From: Bacillaceae bacterium OF18-1A
GTDB taxonomy: Bacteria; Bacillota; Bacilli; Bacillales; Bacillaceae_G
NCBI GenBank assembly: GCA_027694045.1
Contig: JAQEWB010000001.1
Coordinates: 620,001-684,000 of the forward strand
Length of the DNA stretch: 64,000 nt
Direction: 5' to 3'
The notes beneath the pieces were generated by a model, which worked only from the letters and a program-made list of their open reading frames with translations, had not been told where the DNA came from and did not search any database. Every line of letters begins with the position of its first letter. Within the stretch, counting starts at the first letter, position 1. Below are positions 30,818 through 63,998 of the stretch, in pieces. The position numbers and the translations under genes were made by a program.

Positions 30818-33475
<2,658 letters not shown>

Positions 33476-38800: not shown

Positions 38801-38836
38801 ACATCATTTGGACATACTCATACTGAGGTGAATTGC

Positions 38837-39301
38837 ATGATTTGGGCAATAGCATTGCTTGTACTTGTTTTTCTAATCGGTGCAATAACGAAAGGTCCAG
38901 AAGTAACGCCTGAAGAAATTCGGACGGAACGAATCAAACAGAGTGCAACTCGTAAAAATTTAGAGGTAATGGATCCGAGGGAATTCGAGTATCTTGTAGC
39001 CGACTTCTTTCGTACGCTTGGTTATACAGTCCAAGTAACTCCTGGTTCTAATGATGGTGGAAAAGATATCATTCTTCATAAAGGAAAAGAAATAAAATTC
39101 GTTGAGGTGAAACGATATACCAAAAGCTCCATTGGAAGACCATTCATTCAGAAGCTTCACAGTGCTATTGTGGATGCTGATGCAGTTGGAGGATATTTCG
39201 TTACACTAAGCCATTTCAATAAGAATGCACGACAATATGCAGCGAATAAAAACATTGAGTTGATTGATGGCGATAAACTTATTCATATGATGAATTCATA
39301 A
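38837..39301 (+). CDS. Membrane-anchored Mrr-type restriction endonuclease
   Basis: A 154-residue protein. One N-terminal membrane segment (MIWAIALLVLVFLIGAITKG) is followed by an Mrr catalytic domain: MDPREFEYLVADFFRTLGY, then the PD-(D/E)xK core with GSNDGGKDIIL and FVEVKRY (Asp, then Glu-x-Lys), and QKLHSAIVDADAVGGYFVT. Mrr-type enzymes cut modified or foreign DNA. The membrane anchor suggests it acts at the entry point. It is a single-gene defence-like module, 36 bases after the XRE gene. ATG 38837 is preferred over GTG 38828. Confidence 0.85.
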   Translation: MIWAIALLVLVFLIGAITKGPEVTPEEIRTERIKQSATRKNLEVMDPREFEYLVADFFRTLGYTVQVTPGSNDGGKDIILHKGKEIKFVEVKRYTKSSIGRPFIQKLHSAIVDADAVGGYFVTLSHFNKNARQYAANKNIELIDGDKLIHMMNS

Positions 39302-40636: not shown

Positions 40637-41470
40637 CTATTCTTTCGTATAGAAGTACTTAAACCCTCTCGCATCTAACCAAGCAGTCGCCTTATCTAAT
40701 TCATTCCCCTGGCGATAATCTGTTTCGAAAATAACCAGTCCTTGTTTATCTCCATGCGAAACAATTTTAGAAGTATATCCAAGTTGGTCCATCATTTGAA
40801 TCATCTCAGGAACTAAATTTACTCCGAACTCATACGAAACAACTTTACTAAACTTATTCACTGTAATCTCCACTCCTTCTTCTTGTTTTTCTGCTTTTTC
40901 AACAGTCTGATTGATAAACCAAGACAAAGGCTTGCTTCCGATTAATTCATTTAAATCACACTTACCGATACCAGGTACGTTTCCTGTCTCGGTGAATTGC
41001 CAAATATCGCATGGATACTTAGGTTTTGAACCGCCATAACGAGGGATCCATACAAAGTCACATTTTACATTCGCCATGCCAAATGGAGCGTACATATGAT
41101 GGCCAACATATAAACCAACTTTCTTTGCTCCTAATCGGTATAATTCATCGATGAAGGCTTGTGTGCCGGCTCTCATGTCATCCATTGTTTTTACTTCTAC
41201 ATCTGCTACCCATACAGTTGCACTCTTGTCACCACGGTTCCAGAAGTCTTGTGCTTCCTTTTTCGCATCTGCAATGGAGATAAAGCGACAAAATGCATAG
41301 TTACCAAAAGGAATGTTATGTTGCTTCATACTTTGTACATACCCTTTGTATAACGGATCCACGTAATTTGAACCATCTTGTACTCGAGCAATTACGAAAT
41401 CCAAGTACTGTTTTGCCACTGGCCAGTTAATATTACCGTTCCATTTTGAAATATCTACAACGTAACCCAT
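40637..41470 (-). CDS. GH25 endolysin (phage lysozyme)
   Basis: A 277-residue muramidase that cuts host peptidoglycan at lysis. The GH25 domain (residues 1-190) starts [15 protein letters not shown] with the first catalytic Asp and contains WVADVEV (acidic pair) and DIWQFTETG. The C-terminal 70 residues ([20 protein letters not shown] to FKYFYTKE) form a separate domain, probably cell-wall binding, found in other Bacillus lysins. No signal peptide, so it relies on the holin. Overlaps the holin gene by one base. Confidence 0.92.
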
Positions 41471-61357: not shown

Positions 61358-61689
61358 AAGAAAAACACCCCTGATTCATCCTCTTTTTTCTTTTCCATGT
61401 ACGGCTCAAGAAGATTCATTGCAAGGTCACGATAGGATGTACTTTTATCGGCAAACGTTTCCTTATAGTCAGAACGCTCGATACTTTTCACCTGTTGTGG
61501 TTCGCATTCATCTTTTGCTAAATAACAGACGGCAAGTTTGATATCATCAGGGACTTGCTCGCCAATATCTTTCACTTTTGAGCGCACAAAAATAGAAGCT
61601 CGTAACAATGCGGCTTCTAAATTATTCACGTTATTTAGCTCATGGAAAAGGCTGGTTGCTTCATATACTGCAACTAACGATTTCATCAC
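61354..61689 (-). CDS. Head-tail connector-like protein
   Basis: A 111-residue helical protein starting MMKSLVAVYEATSLFHELNN, in the place of the YqbG-type connector directly after the capsid gene. It contains two cysteines (CYLAKDECEP). Position and helical content support the call; the sequence match is modest. Confidence 0.6.
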   Translation of the reverse strand: MMKSLVAVYEATSLFHELNNVNNLEAALLRASIFVRSKVKDIGEQVPDDIKLAVCYLAKDECEPQQVKSIERSDYKETFADKSTSYRDLAMNLLEPYMEKKKEDESGVFFF

Positions 61690-62678
61690 ACATCGATTTG
61701 CATTACGCCTGATGGATATGAAAGCTCAGGGAATGCAGCTTTTCCGATTTCAATGAATTCATTTTCTGTATTCTGTTCTCTCCAAGGCTTCACATACACT
61801 CCAGGTTGTCCTTGTTTTTCAACTGTTGGACCTTGAACAGTTGAACCAAGTGTAGTCTTGCCTTCAATGCCAAGGAATACTACGCGACGCTCTGGTAAAT
61901 AACGTTCTGTTTTTCCATCTTCAAACGTGATTTCTAAATCATTTGTTGTGATTGGTGGGATATTCCAGCGTGATAAATACGTTGCTAGTTCATCCGGCGT
62001 TACCATACCACCTGCTACACCTTTAATATTTCCGATTGTTGATTTCGCTTGCAGAATATCAAGGTAAGCTGCATTTGACATATGAATTGCTAATGGGCGA
62101 CGACCTGCGTTTGCTTTCTTGAACTTTTCAATCCAATCTACAAGATCTTTAATTGGATTAGATGTATCTACATTGTTCCACTTTGTCGTCGCAGCAAATG
62201 ATTTCGGTACATCAAATGATAAATCTAATGAGAAGCCATCTAAATCATATTTGATTTTCCCTTTGTATAATACAGATGAACGTAAGTATTCTTCTGTCTC
62301 GTCCACACCTAACTTTAAGTTATCGATATGATTAAATACACGATCAATAACTTGCTGACGCTCTTTATCAAATTTTGTATTCATAATTGTTAATTGGTCT
62401 TTTTGATCAAAACGGTAACGGTGTGAAAGCTTCGCAACTTCACCAACAGCGCGCTCTAATCCTTGTTTGTCACGTAATGGTGCAGGTGCGCCAAACTCTA
62501 ACAGGTTTGCTGCAACATTACTGTTCTTTTTGAAAATGTCGTATGCGAACGTAAGACCGTATACATCCTTATCACGAGGTAAGAATGGCAGTGTTTTGGA
62601 TTCAAATGGTACTGTTAAATTTTCCACATAACCAATTAGGGTTTCGCGTTTAAATTCATCTAATTGTAAGATACTCAT
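61686..62678 (-). CDS. Major capsid protein, lambda E type
   Basis: A 330-residue protein starting MSILQLDEFKRETLIGYVEN. The blocks ERAVGEVAKLSHRYRFDQKD, KNSNVAANLLEFGAPAPLRD and TYLSRWNIPPI are those of the phage capsid E family. It follows decoration and scaffold genes in transcription order, as in lambda. Confidence 0.85.
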   Translation of the reverse strand: MSILQLDEFKRETLIGYVENLTVPFESKTLPFLPRDKDVYGLTFAYDIFKKNSNVAANLLEFGAPAPLRDKQGLERAVGEVAKLSHRYRFDQKDQLTIMNTKFDKERQQVIDRVFNHIDNLKLGVDETEEYLRSSVLYKGKIKYDLDGFSLDLSFDVPKSFAATTKWNNVDTSNPIKDLVDWIEKFKKANAGRRPLAIHMSNAAYLDILQAKSTIGNIKGVAGGMVTPDELATYLSRWNIPPITTNDLEITFEDGKTERYLPERRVVFLGIEGKTTLGSTVQGPTVEKQGQPGVYVKPWREQNTENEFIEIGKAAFPELSYPSGVMQIDV

Positions 62679-62693
62679 TCAGCTTCACTCTCC

Positions 62694-63044
62694 TTATCGA
62701 ATGTCTAACATTTTTGCTTTTGCTTTAAACTCTGGTAAAATCGCAGGGCATTTTGATTCTTTTACATAGCCACCAACAAGTCCTACTGCTTGCACATCAT
62801 TTGTATCGATGCGAATATCACGGAACAGTAATGAAACTTGCTCTGTTGATGCAGCATCCTTTGTTTTATCGAACGGACGCGTTTTCTTTGTTGTTGCATC
62901 AAAGATTAATGATGTACCGGCAGGAATAATACCTGCTGTAAATGTAGTGTAATCTAACGTTACTGTGACTGTTTTTAAACCAACCACATCACGCAGAATT
63001 TCTTTACCAGCAACGACTGTATCTTTACGTGTATATAGATTCAA
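62694..63044 (-). CDS. Head decoration-like protein
   Basis: A 116-residue beta-rich protein (GLKTVTVTLDYTTFTAGIIP, then FRDIRIDTNDVQAVGLVGGY) just upstream of the capsid gene, in the place of lambda gpD-like decoration proteins. Family call is by fold impression and synteny. Confidence 0.65.
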   Translation of the reverse strand: MNLYTRKDTVVAGKEILRDVVGLKTVTVTLDYTTFTAGIIPAGTSLIFDATTKKTRPFDKTKDAASTEQVSLLFRDIRIDTNDVQAVGLVGGYVKESKCPAILPEFKAKAKMLDIR

Positions 63045-63057
63045 TTTACTTCACTCC

Positions 63058-63699
63058 TTAATTTTTTTGACTACGACGTTTCGCTAATTCTGCACCTAAA
63101 TCGTAGTCTGTTTTCGATGCAGGGGGATTTCCACCGCCTGGTGCAGTACTTCCTGGTTTTTGTTGACCACCACCTCCTTGACCGCCTGATGCTGCTTCCT
63201 CACTTTCAAATAGGAATGGCTTCTCTGCCTTTACCTGTTCAATTGCTTCTTTCATATTCGTAATTTCACCAGTATCAGGGTCAGTCGTTAGTAACGGTTG
63301 AACCGCAGTAAAAAGGAGATCTGCATCATGCGGTTTGTGCCCAATAGAAGCTTTAACAAACGCAAGTTCAGTCTCCAATGATTTATTTTTAGTTGTGAGT
63401 GTTTCGTTTGAAGCTTTTAATGTTGCATCGGCTTCTTCTTTACCATTTACAGCAGCTAATTTATCTTGCAAATCCTTTAATGATTCCACACCTAACTGCT
63501 TATACACATCTAATTTACCTTGTCGCTTTGCTTCTTTCGTTGCATCACCAAGTTGCGTATCCAGTTGCTCCTGCGTATAGGTCACAGGTGGGTCATTAGG
63601 TGGATCTGTTGGTGGTGGGTCTTGTGGTGGATCAGCTGGCGGATTTGGGTCCGAAAAGTATTGGAAGTTTCCTAAGCGTAATTTAAATGGTTGTTTCAT
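63058..63699 (-). CDS. Capsid scaffold-like protein
   Basis: A 213-residue protein with a proline-rich start (PADPPQDPPPTDPPNDPP), a helical coiled-coil middle (DATLKASNETLTTKNKSLET) and a Gly/Gln-rich end (GQGGGGQQKPG). This fits DUF4355/minor scaffold proteins that guide capsid assembly. It lies directly before the decoration and capsid genes. Confidence 0.7.
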   Translation of the reverse strand: MKQPFKLRLGNFQYFSDPNPPADPPQDPPPTDPPNDPPVTYTQEQLDTQLGDATKEAKRQGKLDVYKQLGVESLKDLQDKLAAVNGKEEADATLKASNETLTTKNKSLETELAFVKASIGHKPHDADLLFTAVQPLLTTDPDTGEITNMKEAIEQVKAEKPFLFESEEAASGGQGGGGQQKPGSTAPGGGNPPASKTDYDLGAELAKRRSQKN

Positions 63700-63701
63700 G
63701 A

Positions 63702-63998
63702 TTATTCCCCCTTATACTGGTTTGGATTTTCTATCTCATTCTTCACTTTCTTACTATCACTTACAAGGCTGGTTTTAATGTTTATAAGTTCGAGACTGTT
63801 CTCGACATTTATAAAATCAACAACCTCCCAATCTTCTGCTAATGCATCTGAAGTACTAGGTGACCATGTAGCAACATCGTTTTGTGCTGTTTTTAATGCA
63901 AGGTACGCACGGTATGGAACATCCTCTCCACCAAATGCTTCCTTCATAATATCTGTAGCTGGTGGATATGATGCTGCAGGTACATAATAAACAAACAT
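63702..63998 (-). CDS. Tad2-like (DUF2829) anti-Thoeris protein, N-terminus cut by window edge
   Basis: At least 98 residues, beginning at the edge with MFVYYVPAASYP. The motif RAYLALKTAQNDVATWSPS then LAEDWEVVDF matches the DUF2829/Tad2 pattern (a Trp-x-Pro-Ser then an Ala-Glu-Asp-Trp ending). Tad2 proteins block the Thoeris defence by holding its cyclic ADP-ribose-type signal. The usual first 20 or so residues should lie beyond 64000. A 35-residue C-terminal extension is unusual. It is next to the scaffold gene, so it may be expressed late. Family recalled, not searched. Confidence 0.7.
   Translation of the reverse strand: MFVYYVPAASYPPATDIMKEAFGGEDVPYRAYLALKTAQNDVATWSPSTSDALAEDWEVVDFINVENSLELINIKTSLVSDSKKVKNEIENPNQYKGE

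What the first reader, a model, noticed from the sequence alone, without database searches (positions are those of the whole stretch)
63702..63998. Prophage-borne Tad2-like anti-Thoeris gene next to capsid genes
The partial ORF carries the DUF2829/Tad2 signature (ALKTAQNDVATWSPS, LAEDWEVV) but has a C-terminal extension of about 35 residues, and it sits between the scaffold gene and unseen upstream head genes instead of in an early anti-defence island. Thoeris is a Bacillus defence system, so a prophage carrying its inhibitor fits. The extension may be new.
Basis: partly seen in the sequence, partly recalled or inferred. Interest (0 to 1): 0.7.

Follow-up and report, generated by a model that had tools for sequence, protein, structure and literature searches.

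The report
Tad2-like sponge gene in capsid operon
A Bacillus prophage carries a gene of the known Tad2 family of phage proteins that soak up bacterial alarm molecules, placed in an exchangeable slot beside its capsid genes; the gene itself is ordinary, its odd tail is probably meaningless, but the way such sponge genes collect in that slot is worth following up.

Summary
The minus-strand ORF 63702-63998 is the 3' part of a Tad2-like gene (PF11195, E 1.9e-10, above cut-off), directly upstream of scaffold and major capsid genes of a Bacillus prophage. The match starts at profile position 26, so the true start lies beyond the window. The closest solved relative is ModTad2, crystallised with His-ADPR (37 of 61 residues identical).

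The 37-residue tail finds no relative, has less gene-like codons than 116 of 116 comparison stretches and low model confidence. I read it as stop-loss read-through into the scaffold gene's ribosome site.

The position is not exceptional. In four relatives with 89-96% identical capsid protein the slot is empty, or holds a different Tad2, a XendoU-family protein, or an unknown ORF. Similar Tad2 genes occupy the slot in phages whose capsid proteins show no BLASTP similarity, often chained to or fused with Acb4-family (PF13876, anti-CBASS sponge) genes. A 2012 gene table already shows one such position.

Best reading: a co-expressed signal sponge in a cargo slot. Function was not tested. New member of a known kind; the sponge slot is the interesting part.

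The parts
63702..63998 (-). Visible part of the Tad2-like (PF11195/DUF2829) gene; about 25 N-terminal codons lie beyond the window end
   Evidence: nearest PDB chains 9eib/8v3e ModTad2, E 3.4e-20
63816..63998 (-). Tad2 domain part, residues 1-61 of the visible ORF
   Evidence: Pfam match 1-60; model pLDDT block means 85-95 over residues 1-40, 66-70 over 41-60
63705..63815 (-). 37-residue C-terminal tail, probably stop-loss read-through of intergenic DNA
   Evidence: No homologue found; codon score below 116 of 116 gene stretches; pLDDT 50-58
63790..63805 (-). Inverted repeat TCGAGA-ACAG-TCTCGA near the start of the tail; RNA hairpin of -10.5 kcal/mol with flanks
63707..63713 (-). Shine-Dalgarno-like AAGGGGG of the scaffold gene, lying inside the last codons of the tail; the TAA stop ends 2 nt before the scaffold ATG
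   Evidence: Sequence read directly
63058..63699 (-). Head scaffolding protein gene
   Evidence: phrog_2303 E 1.1e-15; PF06810 E 9.9e-10
62694..63044 (-). Head decoration-like / phrog_11771 protein
   Evidence: phrog_11771 E 3.1e-15, phrog_909 E 6.9e-6, phrog_3583 E 4.1e-5
61686..62678 (-). Major capsid protein, Phage_cap_E
   Evidence: PF03864 E 1.1e-21; 94% to Bacillus pacificus

Best explanation
The gene encodes a Tad2-family sponge protein that binds and holds an ADP-ribose-type alarm molecule of a Thoeris defence system, so that the suicide effector is not switched on. His-ADPR (type II Thoeris) is somewhat more likely than gcADPR, because ModTad2 is the closest solved relative. It sits as cargo in an exchangeable slot of the head operon, between minor head and scaffold genes, and is made together with the capsid. 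Since a staphylococcal Thoeris system senses the phage capsid protein, making the sponge with the capsid could blunt the alarm when it sounds. The C-terminal tail is most likely read-through after loss of the normal stop codon; at most it keeps ribosomes running up to the scaffold start. Shown: family membership, position next to the scaffold gene, exchangeability of the slot in relatives, no tail homologue found. Inferred: upstream neighbour in the window, ligand, target system, timing, lack of tail function.
For: PF11195 match. ModTad2 is the best PDB sequence and Foldseek hit; 9eib is titled as the complex with hisADPR; 37 of 61 residues identical. With the full-length relative P0003 ModTad2 also leads, E 2.5e-33 against 5.3e-15 for the next. 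Papers, passages only: MoTad2 binds His-ADPR and SPO1 Tad2 binds gcADPR (PMC13299392); Thoeris is triggered by the major head protein of PhiNM1, where a small ORF gp41, numbered between minor head gp40 and scaffold gp42, is dispensable for particles (PMC12578639). Slot content differs among phages with 89-96% identical capsid protein. Against L058 and L062, whose slot is empty and whose flanks are 84-92% identical, L059 has an insertion that matches the Tad2 gene's bounds. That gene is 85-87% identical in DNA in L007, L009 and L013, where the alignment ends within about 25 bases of the gene. The window gene aligns to L002-L017 over its domain part only, ending at base 173-184 of the reverse strand. 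Acb4-family genes, another sponge, lie beside these Tad2 genes: 25 of 50 Tad2 records hold PF13876, in 24 of the 25 within 500 bp of a Tad2 match.
Against: No activity or ligand was tested. The N-terminal part and the upstream genes are unseen. No Thoeris system was looked for in the host, because no genome is held. SPO1 tad2 (gp34.65) lies in a block of small genes, not beside head genes, so a capsid-linked position is not general for Tad2. Other Tad2 relatives lie beside replication, lysis or integrase genes. In the passages I saw, capsid sensing is shown for a staphylococcal NAD-depleting Thoeris, not for the type II systems that use His-ADPR. Of 50 records of the window's wider capsid family only 1 has a Tad2-like gene. 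The Pfam MuF minor-head family was found in only 2 of 50 Tad2 records; other slots have another minor head family or a portal upstream. Scaffolds of several groups, and some portals and minor heads, are distantly similar, so the slot may be an inherited position rather than many independent gains.
Confidence: 0.68

Rival explanations
1. The protein is a Tad2-fold sponge for cyclic dinucleotides (anti-CBASS) rather than, or besides, Thoeris signals.
For: PDB entries show the fold with cGG as well as cADPR (SptTad2 with cGG; AcrIIA7 with cADPR and cGG). A review states that Tad2 binds dinucleotides, 3'3'-cGAMP included, through an insertion between strands 2 and 5 (PMC12043709 passages). Acb4-family neighbours point to CBASS pressure on these phages.
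Against: The window protein is far closer to ModTad2 (E 3.4e-20) than to AcrIIA7 (0.03-0.08) or SptTad2 (0.41); for full-length P0003 these are 2.5e-33, 5.3e-15 to 3.4e-14, and 1e-13. SPO1 Tad2 does not bind 3'3'-cGAMP (PMC11722364 passages).
Confidence: 0.15
2. The protein is an anti-CRISPR of the AcrIIA7 kind.
For: AcrIIA7 carries the same Pfam domain (PMC6739104 passages). The full-length relative P0003 matches AcrIIA7 chains about as well as SPO1 Tad2 (5.3e-15 and 3.4e-14 against 3e-14).
Against: ModTad2 is much closer. Only one AcrIIA7 homologue sat in a genome with II-A self-targeting spacers (PMC6739104 passages).
Confidence: 0.05
3. It is a head-assembly or minor structural protein, which is why it lies between head genes.
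For: Repeated position between minor head/portal and scaffold in several capsid types.
Against: L058 and L062 lack it although their flanking head genes are 84-92% identical to L059; other relatives have a XendoU-family protein or an unknown ORF there. Relatives also occur beside replication and lysis genes. PhiNM1 gp41 is dispensable for particles.
Confidence: 0.07
4. The C-terminal tail is a new functional part, for example a helical docking or oligomerisation segment.
For: A 37-codon open frame; at the tail's base composition an open run of that length has a chance of about 4%. A helix is predicted for residues 65-90. The codon score lies above most off-frame stretches.
Against: No relative shares it (no candidate sharing three words; best tblastn E 4.5 in the loci then held). 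Codon score -0.08 against a 5% point of 0.10 in 116 gene stretches. pLDDT 50-58. It ends over the scaffold ribosome site.
Confidence: 0.12

Closest known systems
ModTad2 (Myroides odoratus prophage; PDB 9eib with hisADPR, 8v3e apo)
   Same: Same family; 37 of 61 visible residues identical; best sequence and fold hit
   Different: 88-89 aa without a tail; other host; the window protein's ligand is unknown
SPO1 Tad2, gp34.65
   Same: Same Pfam family and fold; Bacillus phage
   Different: Weaker similarity (E 7.9e-5; 3e-14 for full-length relative P0003); lies in a small-gene block, not beside head genes
SpaA1 P7 (DUF2829 between head morphogenesis and scaffold genes)
   Same: Same family, same slot, published gene table
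   Different: No BLASTP match between the capsid proteins, though portal and minor head are distantly similar to those of the window's relatives; about 90 aa; the table makes no functional claim
AcrIIA7 / HgmTad2 / SptTad2
   Same: Same domain and fold
   Different: Further away than ModTad2; bind cGG and cADPR in crystal entries
MuF polymorphic toxins of temperate phages
   Same: Same gene block, after the portal gene, with small genes downstream of the MuF gene (PMC5576092 passages)
   Different: There the variable part is a toxin domain fused to MuF plus a presumed immunity gene; here the cargo is separate genes

Membership tests
Tad2-like (PF11195) | Match to the curated profile above its cut-off | tested here: met
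   41.6 bits against 25, E 1.9e-10
Tad2-like (PF11195) | Whole domain present | tested here: inconclusive
   Profile positions 26-73 of 73 seen; the rest lies outside the window
Tad2-like (PF11195) | Residues shared by solved Tad2 proteins kept | tested here: inconclusive
   13 of 16 residues common to ModTad2 and SPO1 Tad2 over window residues 30-60 are kept; Q39, V42 and V59 differ. Which of these touch ligand is not known to me; residues 1-25 of the full protein are unseen
Tad2 (anti-Thoeris sponge) | Tad2 fold | tested here: met
   Foldseek top hits 9eib_A and 9eib_B, E 1.1e-4 and 1.9e-4, probability 1.00; partial domain, pTM 0.41, TM 0.45-0.51
Tad2 (anti-Thoeris sponge) | Tetramer with two signal pockets between protomers | not testable with these tools
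   Monomer prediction of a partial domain only; definition from PMC12043709 passages
Tad2 (anti-Thoeris sponge) | Binds gcADPR or His-ADPR and rescues phage from Thoeris | not testable with these tools
   Needs a binding assay and a phage assay
AcrIIA7 anti-CRISPR | AcrIIA7 is the closest characterised relative | tested here: not met
   E 0.03-0.08 against 3.4e-20 for ModTad2; with full-length P0003 5.3e-15 and 3.4e-14 against 2.5e-33
AcrIIA7 anti-CRISPR | Inhibits type II Cas9 | not testable with these tools
   Needs an assay
MuF toxin locus | Toxin domain fused to the MuF protein of this prophage | not testable with these tools
   The minor head gene lies outside the window; in relative L054 Pfam found only the MuF domain

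The most novel reading that the evidence does not exclude
Bacillus temperate phages keep a dedicated, exchangeable signal-sponge slot inside the capsid operon, filled with stackable Tad2 and Acb4 cassettes that chain by 1-nt stop/start overlaps and are sometimes fused into one Acb4-Tad2 protein. The sponges against Thoeris and CBASS are thereby produced in step with the capsid protein that sets off the alarm. The window gene is one such cassette whose stop codon was lost.
Probability: 0.35. Interest if true: 0.72.

Novelty: new member of a known kind. Interest (0 to 1): 0.45.

Why it matters
If the slot is a real home for signal sponges, gene position alone predicts new anti-defence proteins: unknown small ORFs between minor head and scaffold genes, such as the 62-aa ORF of L060 or PhiNM1 gp41, become testable candidates. 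It would also tie the place of a counter-defence gene to the trigger of the defence (the capsid), and fused Acb4-Tad2 proteins would be single proteins against two signalling systems.

Tried and rejected
Tail as a decayed Acb4 gene: best alignment score 26 against a shuffled median of 25 (44% of 1000 shuffles as good); rejected. Tail as a piece of the minor head C-terminus (L058, L057, L059) or of the L060 ORF: shares of 500 shuffles as good 0.12, 0.32, 0.11 and 0.08; not supported. Tail as a conserved domain: no candidate in the protein search, best tblastn E 4.5.

Near-identical DNA in named records: none in phages for 6 kb or plasmids for 24 kb; the scaffold protein finds nothing in phages. 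Capsid-protein search of 61 genomes of the genus of G001 gave one partial match, E 9.9e-12; it did not identify the host. Host: Bacillus names among close capsid relatives; that several of these species belong to the cereus group is recalled. Species not settled.

PF13876 in the capsid-family records: 0 of 50. The tool warns that nothing rang anywhere in that call, but the same model rang in 25 of 50 Tad2 records.

My local Acb4 profile found no Acb4 in SPO1 100000-132562; the rest of SPO1 was not searched, so nothing is said about where SPO1 acb4 lies. In Bacillus phage Palmer the PF13876-type gene lies between holin-type and endolysin genes, not in a head operon.

Chaining to the head genes: the 1-nt overlap is common between cassettes (25 of 40) but was seen at 0 of 29 junctions from minor head or portal to cassette and 0 of 25 from cassette to scaffold in the loci (start codons were taken as the first possible one). 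L059 has it on both sides.

Biases: the locus scans were seeded with slot genes, so the fractions are not unbiased rates; many records are near-duplicates (L003-L005, L018-L021 and others), and several contigs are the same as. Local profiles for minor head, scaffold and Acb4 were iterated and may have drifted. The codon table was made from the same 18 genes that supply the 116 stretches; the Tad2 domain part, not among them, still scored 0.39.

Full report
What is there. The minus strand from 63998 to 63702 encodes 98 residues. Pfam's Tad2-like profile matches residues 1-60 at E 1.9e-10, over its cut-off, from profile position 26. The nine best hits in the protein database (P0002-P0010) are 85-86 aa long and 88-95% identical over the shared part; those fetched begin 25 residues earlier. 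Named hosts among them are Bacillus and Lysinibacillus. The gene is thus cut by the window's end. Among solved structures ModTad2 is nearest by sequence (E 3.4e-20; 37 of 61 residues) and by fold of the partial model. SPO1 Tad2 (E 7.9e-5), AcrIIA7 chains (0.03-0.08) and SptTad2 (0.41) are further away. For the full-length relative P0003 the order is ModTad2 2.5e-33, then AcrIIA7 5.3e-15, SPO1 Tad2 3e-14, AcrIIA7 (9kzr) 3.4e-14, SptTad2 1e-13, so only the ModTad2 link is clearly closer than the rest. Of 16 residues common to ModTad2 and SPO1 Tad2 over window residues 30-60, 13 are kept.

Host and prophage. Downstream lie scaffold, head-decoration-like, Phage_cap_E capsid, tail sheath and tail chaperone genes. 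Named capsid relatives above 85% identity are all Bacillus, among them B. pacificus, mobilis and cytotoxicus (cereus-group membership recalled). The best capsid relatives are 94-96% identical, so I saw no copy of this very prophage. The species is not settled.

The tail. After the domain's last residue or two the relatives stop. The window frame runs on for 37 codons and stops 2 nt before the scaffold ATG, over its AAGGGGG ribosome site. No candidate in the protein search shares three words with residues 59-98. The best tblastn hit in the loci then held has E 4.5. The mean codon score is -0.08 per codon, below 116 of 116 in-frame 37-codon stretches of 18 neighbouring genes (5% point 0.10), though above most off-frame stretches (95% point -0.24); the table was trained on those genes, but the Tad2 domain part, not in it, scores 0.39. 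An open run of 37 codons has a chance of about 4% at the tail's base composition. AlphaFold gives block means of 50-58 from residue 61 on, with a low-confidence helix 65-90. I conclude recent read-through; a function is not excluded.

The slot. Four IMG/VR prophages with 89-96% identical capsid protein differ between minor head and scaffold: L053 has a XendoU-family protein (PF09412, E 1.3e-32), L054 nothing, L055 a different 70-aa Tad2-like protein (PF11195, E 5.6e-12), L056 a 62-aa ORF without a Pfam match. A wider capsid search gave 51 loci (its L057-L060 are the same four records). In 46 of 51 both flanking genes were found. Slots range from no gap to about 2.5 kb; contents include a RES-domain protein (L095, PF08808), an HNH protein (L086) and a treble-clef zinc-finger protein (L084); three further slot ORFs had no Pfam match and one a sub-threshold SprT-like match. 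Many slot ORFs were not scanned. Tad2 is rare in this capsid family: 1 of 50 records given.

Exchange. Comparing L059 (the L055 record) with L058 and L062, the flanks (84-92% identical) align up to position 708 and again from 908 or 913 of a query in which the Tad2 gene spans 701-913. The same 70-aa gene is 85-87% identical in DNA in L007, L009 and L013, where alignment ends within about 25 bases of the gene. The window's domain part is 84-95% identical in DNA to L002-L017, with alignment ending at base 173-184, about the end of their gene.

Same slot, other capsids. Of the 16 best-scoring loci (L002-L017), 14 have portal or minor head genes upstream and/or scaffold and capsid genes downstream: the L006 group (PF06152 minor head, phrog_2303 scaffold, phrog_422 capsid), the L007 group (P22-type portal, phrog_14242 capsid), L002 (MuF, DUF4355 scaffold, SU10 capsid) and L009. 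Group members were assigned by similarity of flanking ORFs to the one scanned. L010 and L013 are contigs that end close by, so one side is cut; L014 and L015 lie beside a minor tail gene. L001 has portal, Acb4-Tad2 fusion, scaffold-like gene, capsid. SpaA1 has head morphogenesis, DUF2829, scaffold, coat (PMC3398947 passages). Capsid proteins fall into five groups with no BLASTP match between groups at E 1e-3: L058; L006; L007; L001/L002; L040/L111. Scaffolds of L001, L002, L006, L007 and L058, and some portals and minor heads, are distantly similar, so the slot itself may be an inherited position with swapped capsids and cargo. The Pfam MuF family was found in only 2 of 50 Tad2 records. Among L018-L052 positions are mixed: portal-type upstream and capsid downstream (L040, L041), weak portal match upstream (L042 group), large terminase upstream (L026; L027, L029, L030 with a portal downstream), dUTPase/primase (L018-L021), endolysin (L038), thymidylate synthase (L047), helicase or integrase (L037, L051, L028), ssb (L050), primase (L025); the rest were not classified.

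Acb4 partners. The gene next to Tad2 in L006 matches PF13876 (E 3.5e-23). A preprint held in PMC names PF13876 as the family of Acb4, an anti-CBASS sponge from SPO1 (PMC11722364 passages). PF13876 occurs in 25 of 50 Tad2 records and 0 of 50 capsid-family records. In 24 of the 25 the two matches lie within 500 bp. Both domains in one protein: L001 by Pfam; L026 and L028 by Pfam matches in frames of equal length and local profiles; Pasteurella phage Pmp13_0045, 185 aa, by local profiles. In two further scans, 9 of 80 Tad2 loci are fused and 20 adjacent (51 neither); of 79 Acb4 loci, 7 are fused and 30 adjacent (42 neither). Each scan lists only the best 80, was seeded with slot or fusion genes, and overlaps earlier contigs. 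Of 40 distinct cassette-to-cassette junctions in these loci, 25 overlap by 1 nt and 5 by 4 nt; junctions to the flanking head genes did not show the 1-nt overlap (0 of 29 and 0 of 25), except in L059. The window shows no Acb4 and no second Tad2 in its visible part by local profiles.

Mechanism. Known, from passages: Tad2 is a tetramer with two signal pockets (PMC12043709); MoTad2 binds His-ADPR and SPO1 Tad2 gcADPR (PMC13299392); a staphylococcal Thoeris senses the phage major head protein, and the phage carries a dispensable small ORF in the same gene block (PMC12578639). Inference: a sponge made from the capsid operon would be present when the capsid triggers the alarm. Against it: SPO1 tad2 is not in a head operon, and other Tad2 relatives are near early or lysis genes. 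That a sponge should precede its trigger is a fair objection that expression data could settle.

In print. Searches for Tad2/Thoeris/DUF2829, His-ADPR/Tad2 (23), DUF2829 (24), AcrIIA7/Tad2/HgmTad2 (26), Tad2/anti-Thoeris/capsid (58), Acb4/Tad2 (73) and a broad slot query (106) showed me no listing or passage that describes Tad2-Acb4 adjacency or fusion, or a sponge slot in the head operon. The Acb4 preprint has a figure of genes around SPO1 acb4 (legend only), which I could not see. The library lacks most subscription papers; original Tad2 and ModTad2 papers tried by recalled DOI were not held. This is not proof of novelty.

Verdict. The gene is an ordinary member of a known family, its tail probably without meaning. 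The recurring sponge slot is the part worth following.

Noticed in passing
L001:9626-10186, L026:9407-10192, L028:3647-4495, L112:3704-4261 (Pasteurella phage Pmp13_0045): Natural fusions of an Acb4-family domain (PF13876) and a Tad2 domain in one protein; possible double sponges.
   Followed up: partly
L008:9618-10658 (same arrangement in L011, L012): Three different Tad2-like genes and an Acb4-family gene in one overlapping chain between portal and scaffold-like genes.
   Followed up: partly
L053:3863-4855, L061:1966-2940: XendoU endoribonuclease-family protein in the slot of a phage with 96% identical capsid protein (Pfam on L053 only); L061 carries a similar protein by eye.
   Followed up: partly
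L095:4611-5711: RES-domain protein with a HEPN/RES N-terminal domain in the slot.
   Followed up: no
L060:5782-5970: 62-aa ORF of unknown family filling the slot.
   Followed up: no
Vibrio phage records MZ592922, OK625546, OQ680630, PV501192, OQ993070: The DUF2829/Tad2-like match is annotated as methionyl-tRNA synthetase, probably a spread misannotation.
   Followed up: no
window 31310-33475 (+): Collagen-like protein with a BclA C-terminal domain.
   Followed up: no
window 40637-41470 (-): Lysin: glycosyl hydrolase 25 with a PlyG-type wall-binding domain.
   Followed up: no
window 38828-39301 (+): Mrr-type restriction endonuclease domain protein.
   Followed up: no
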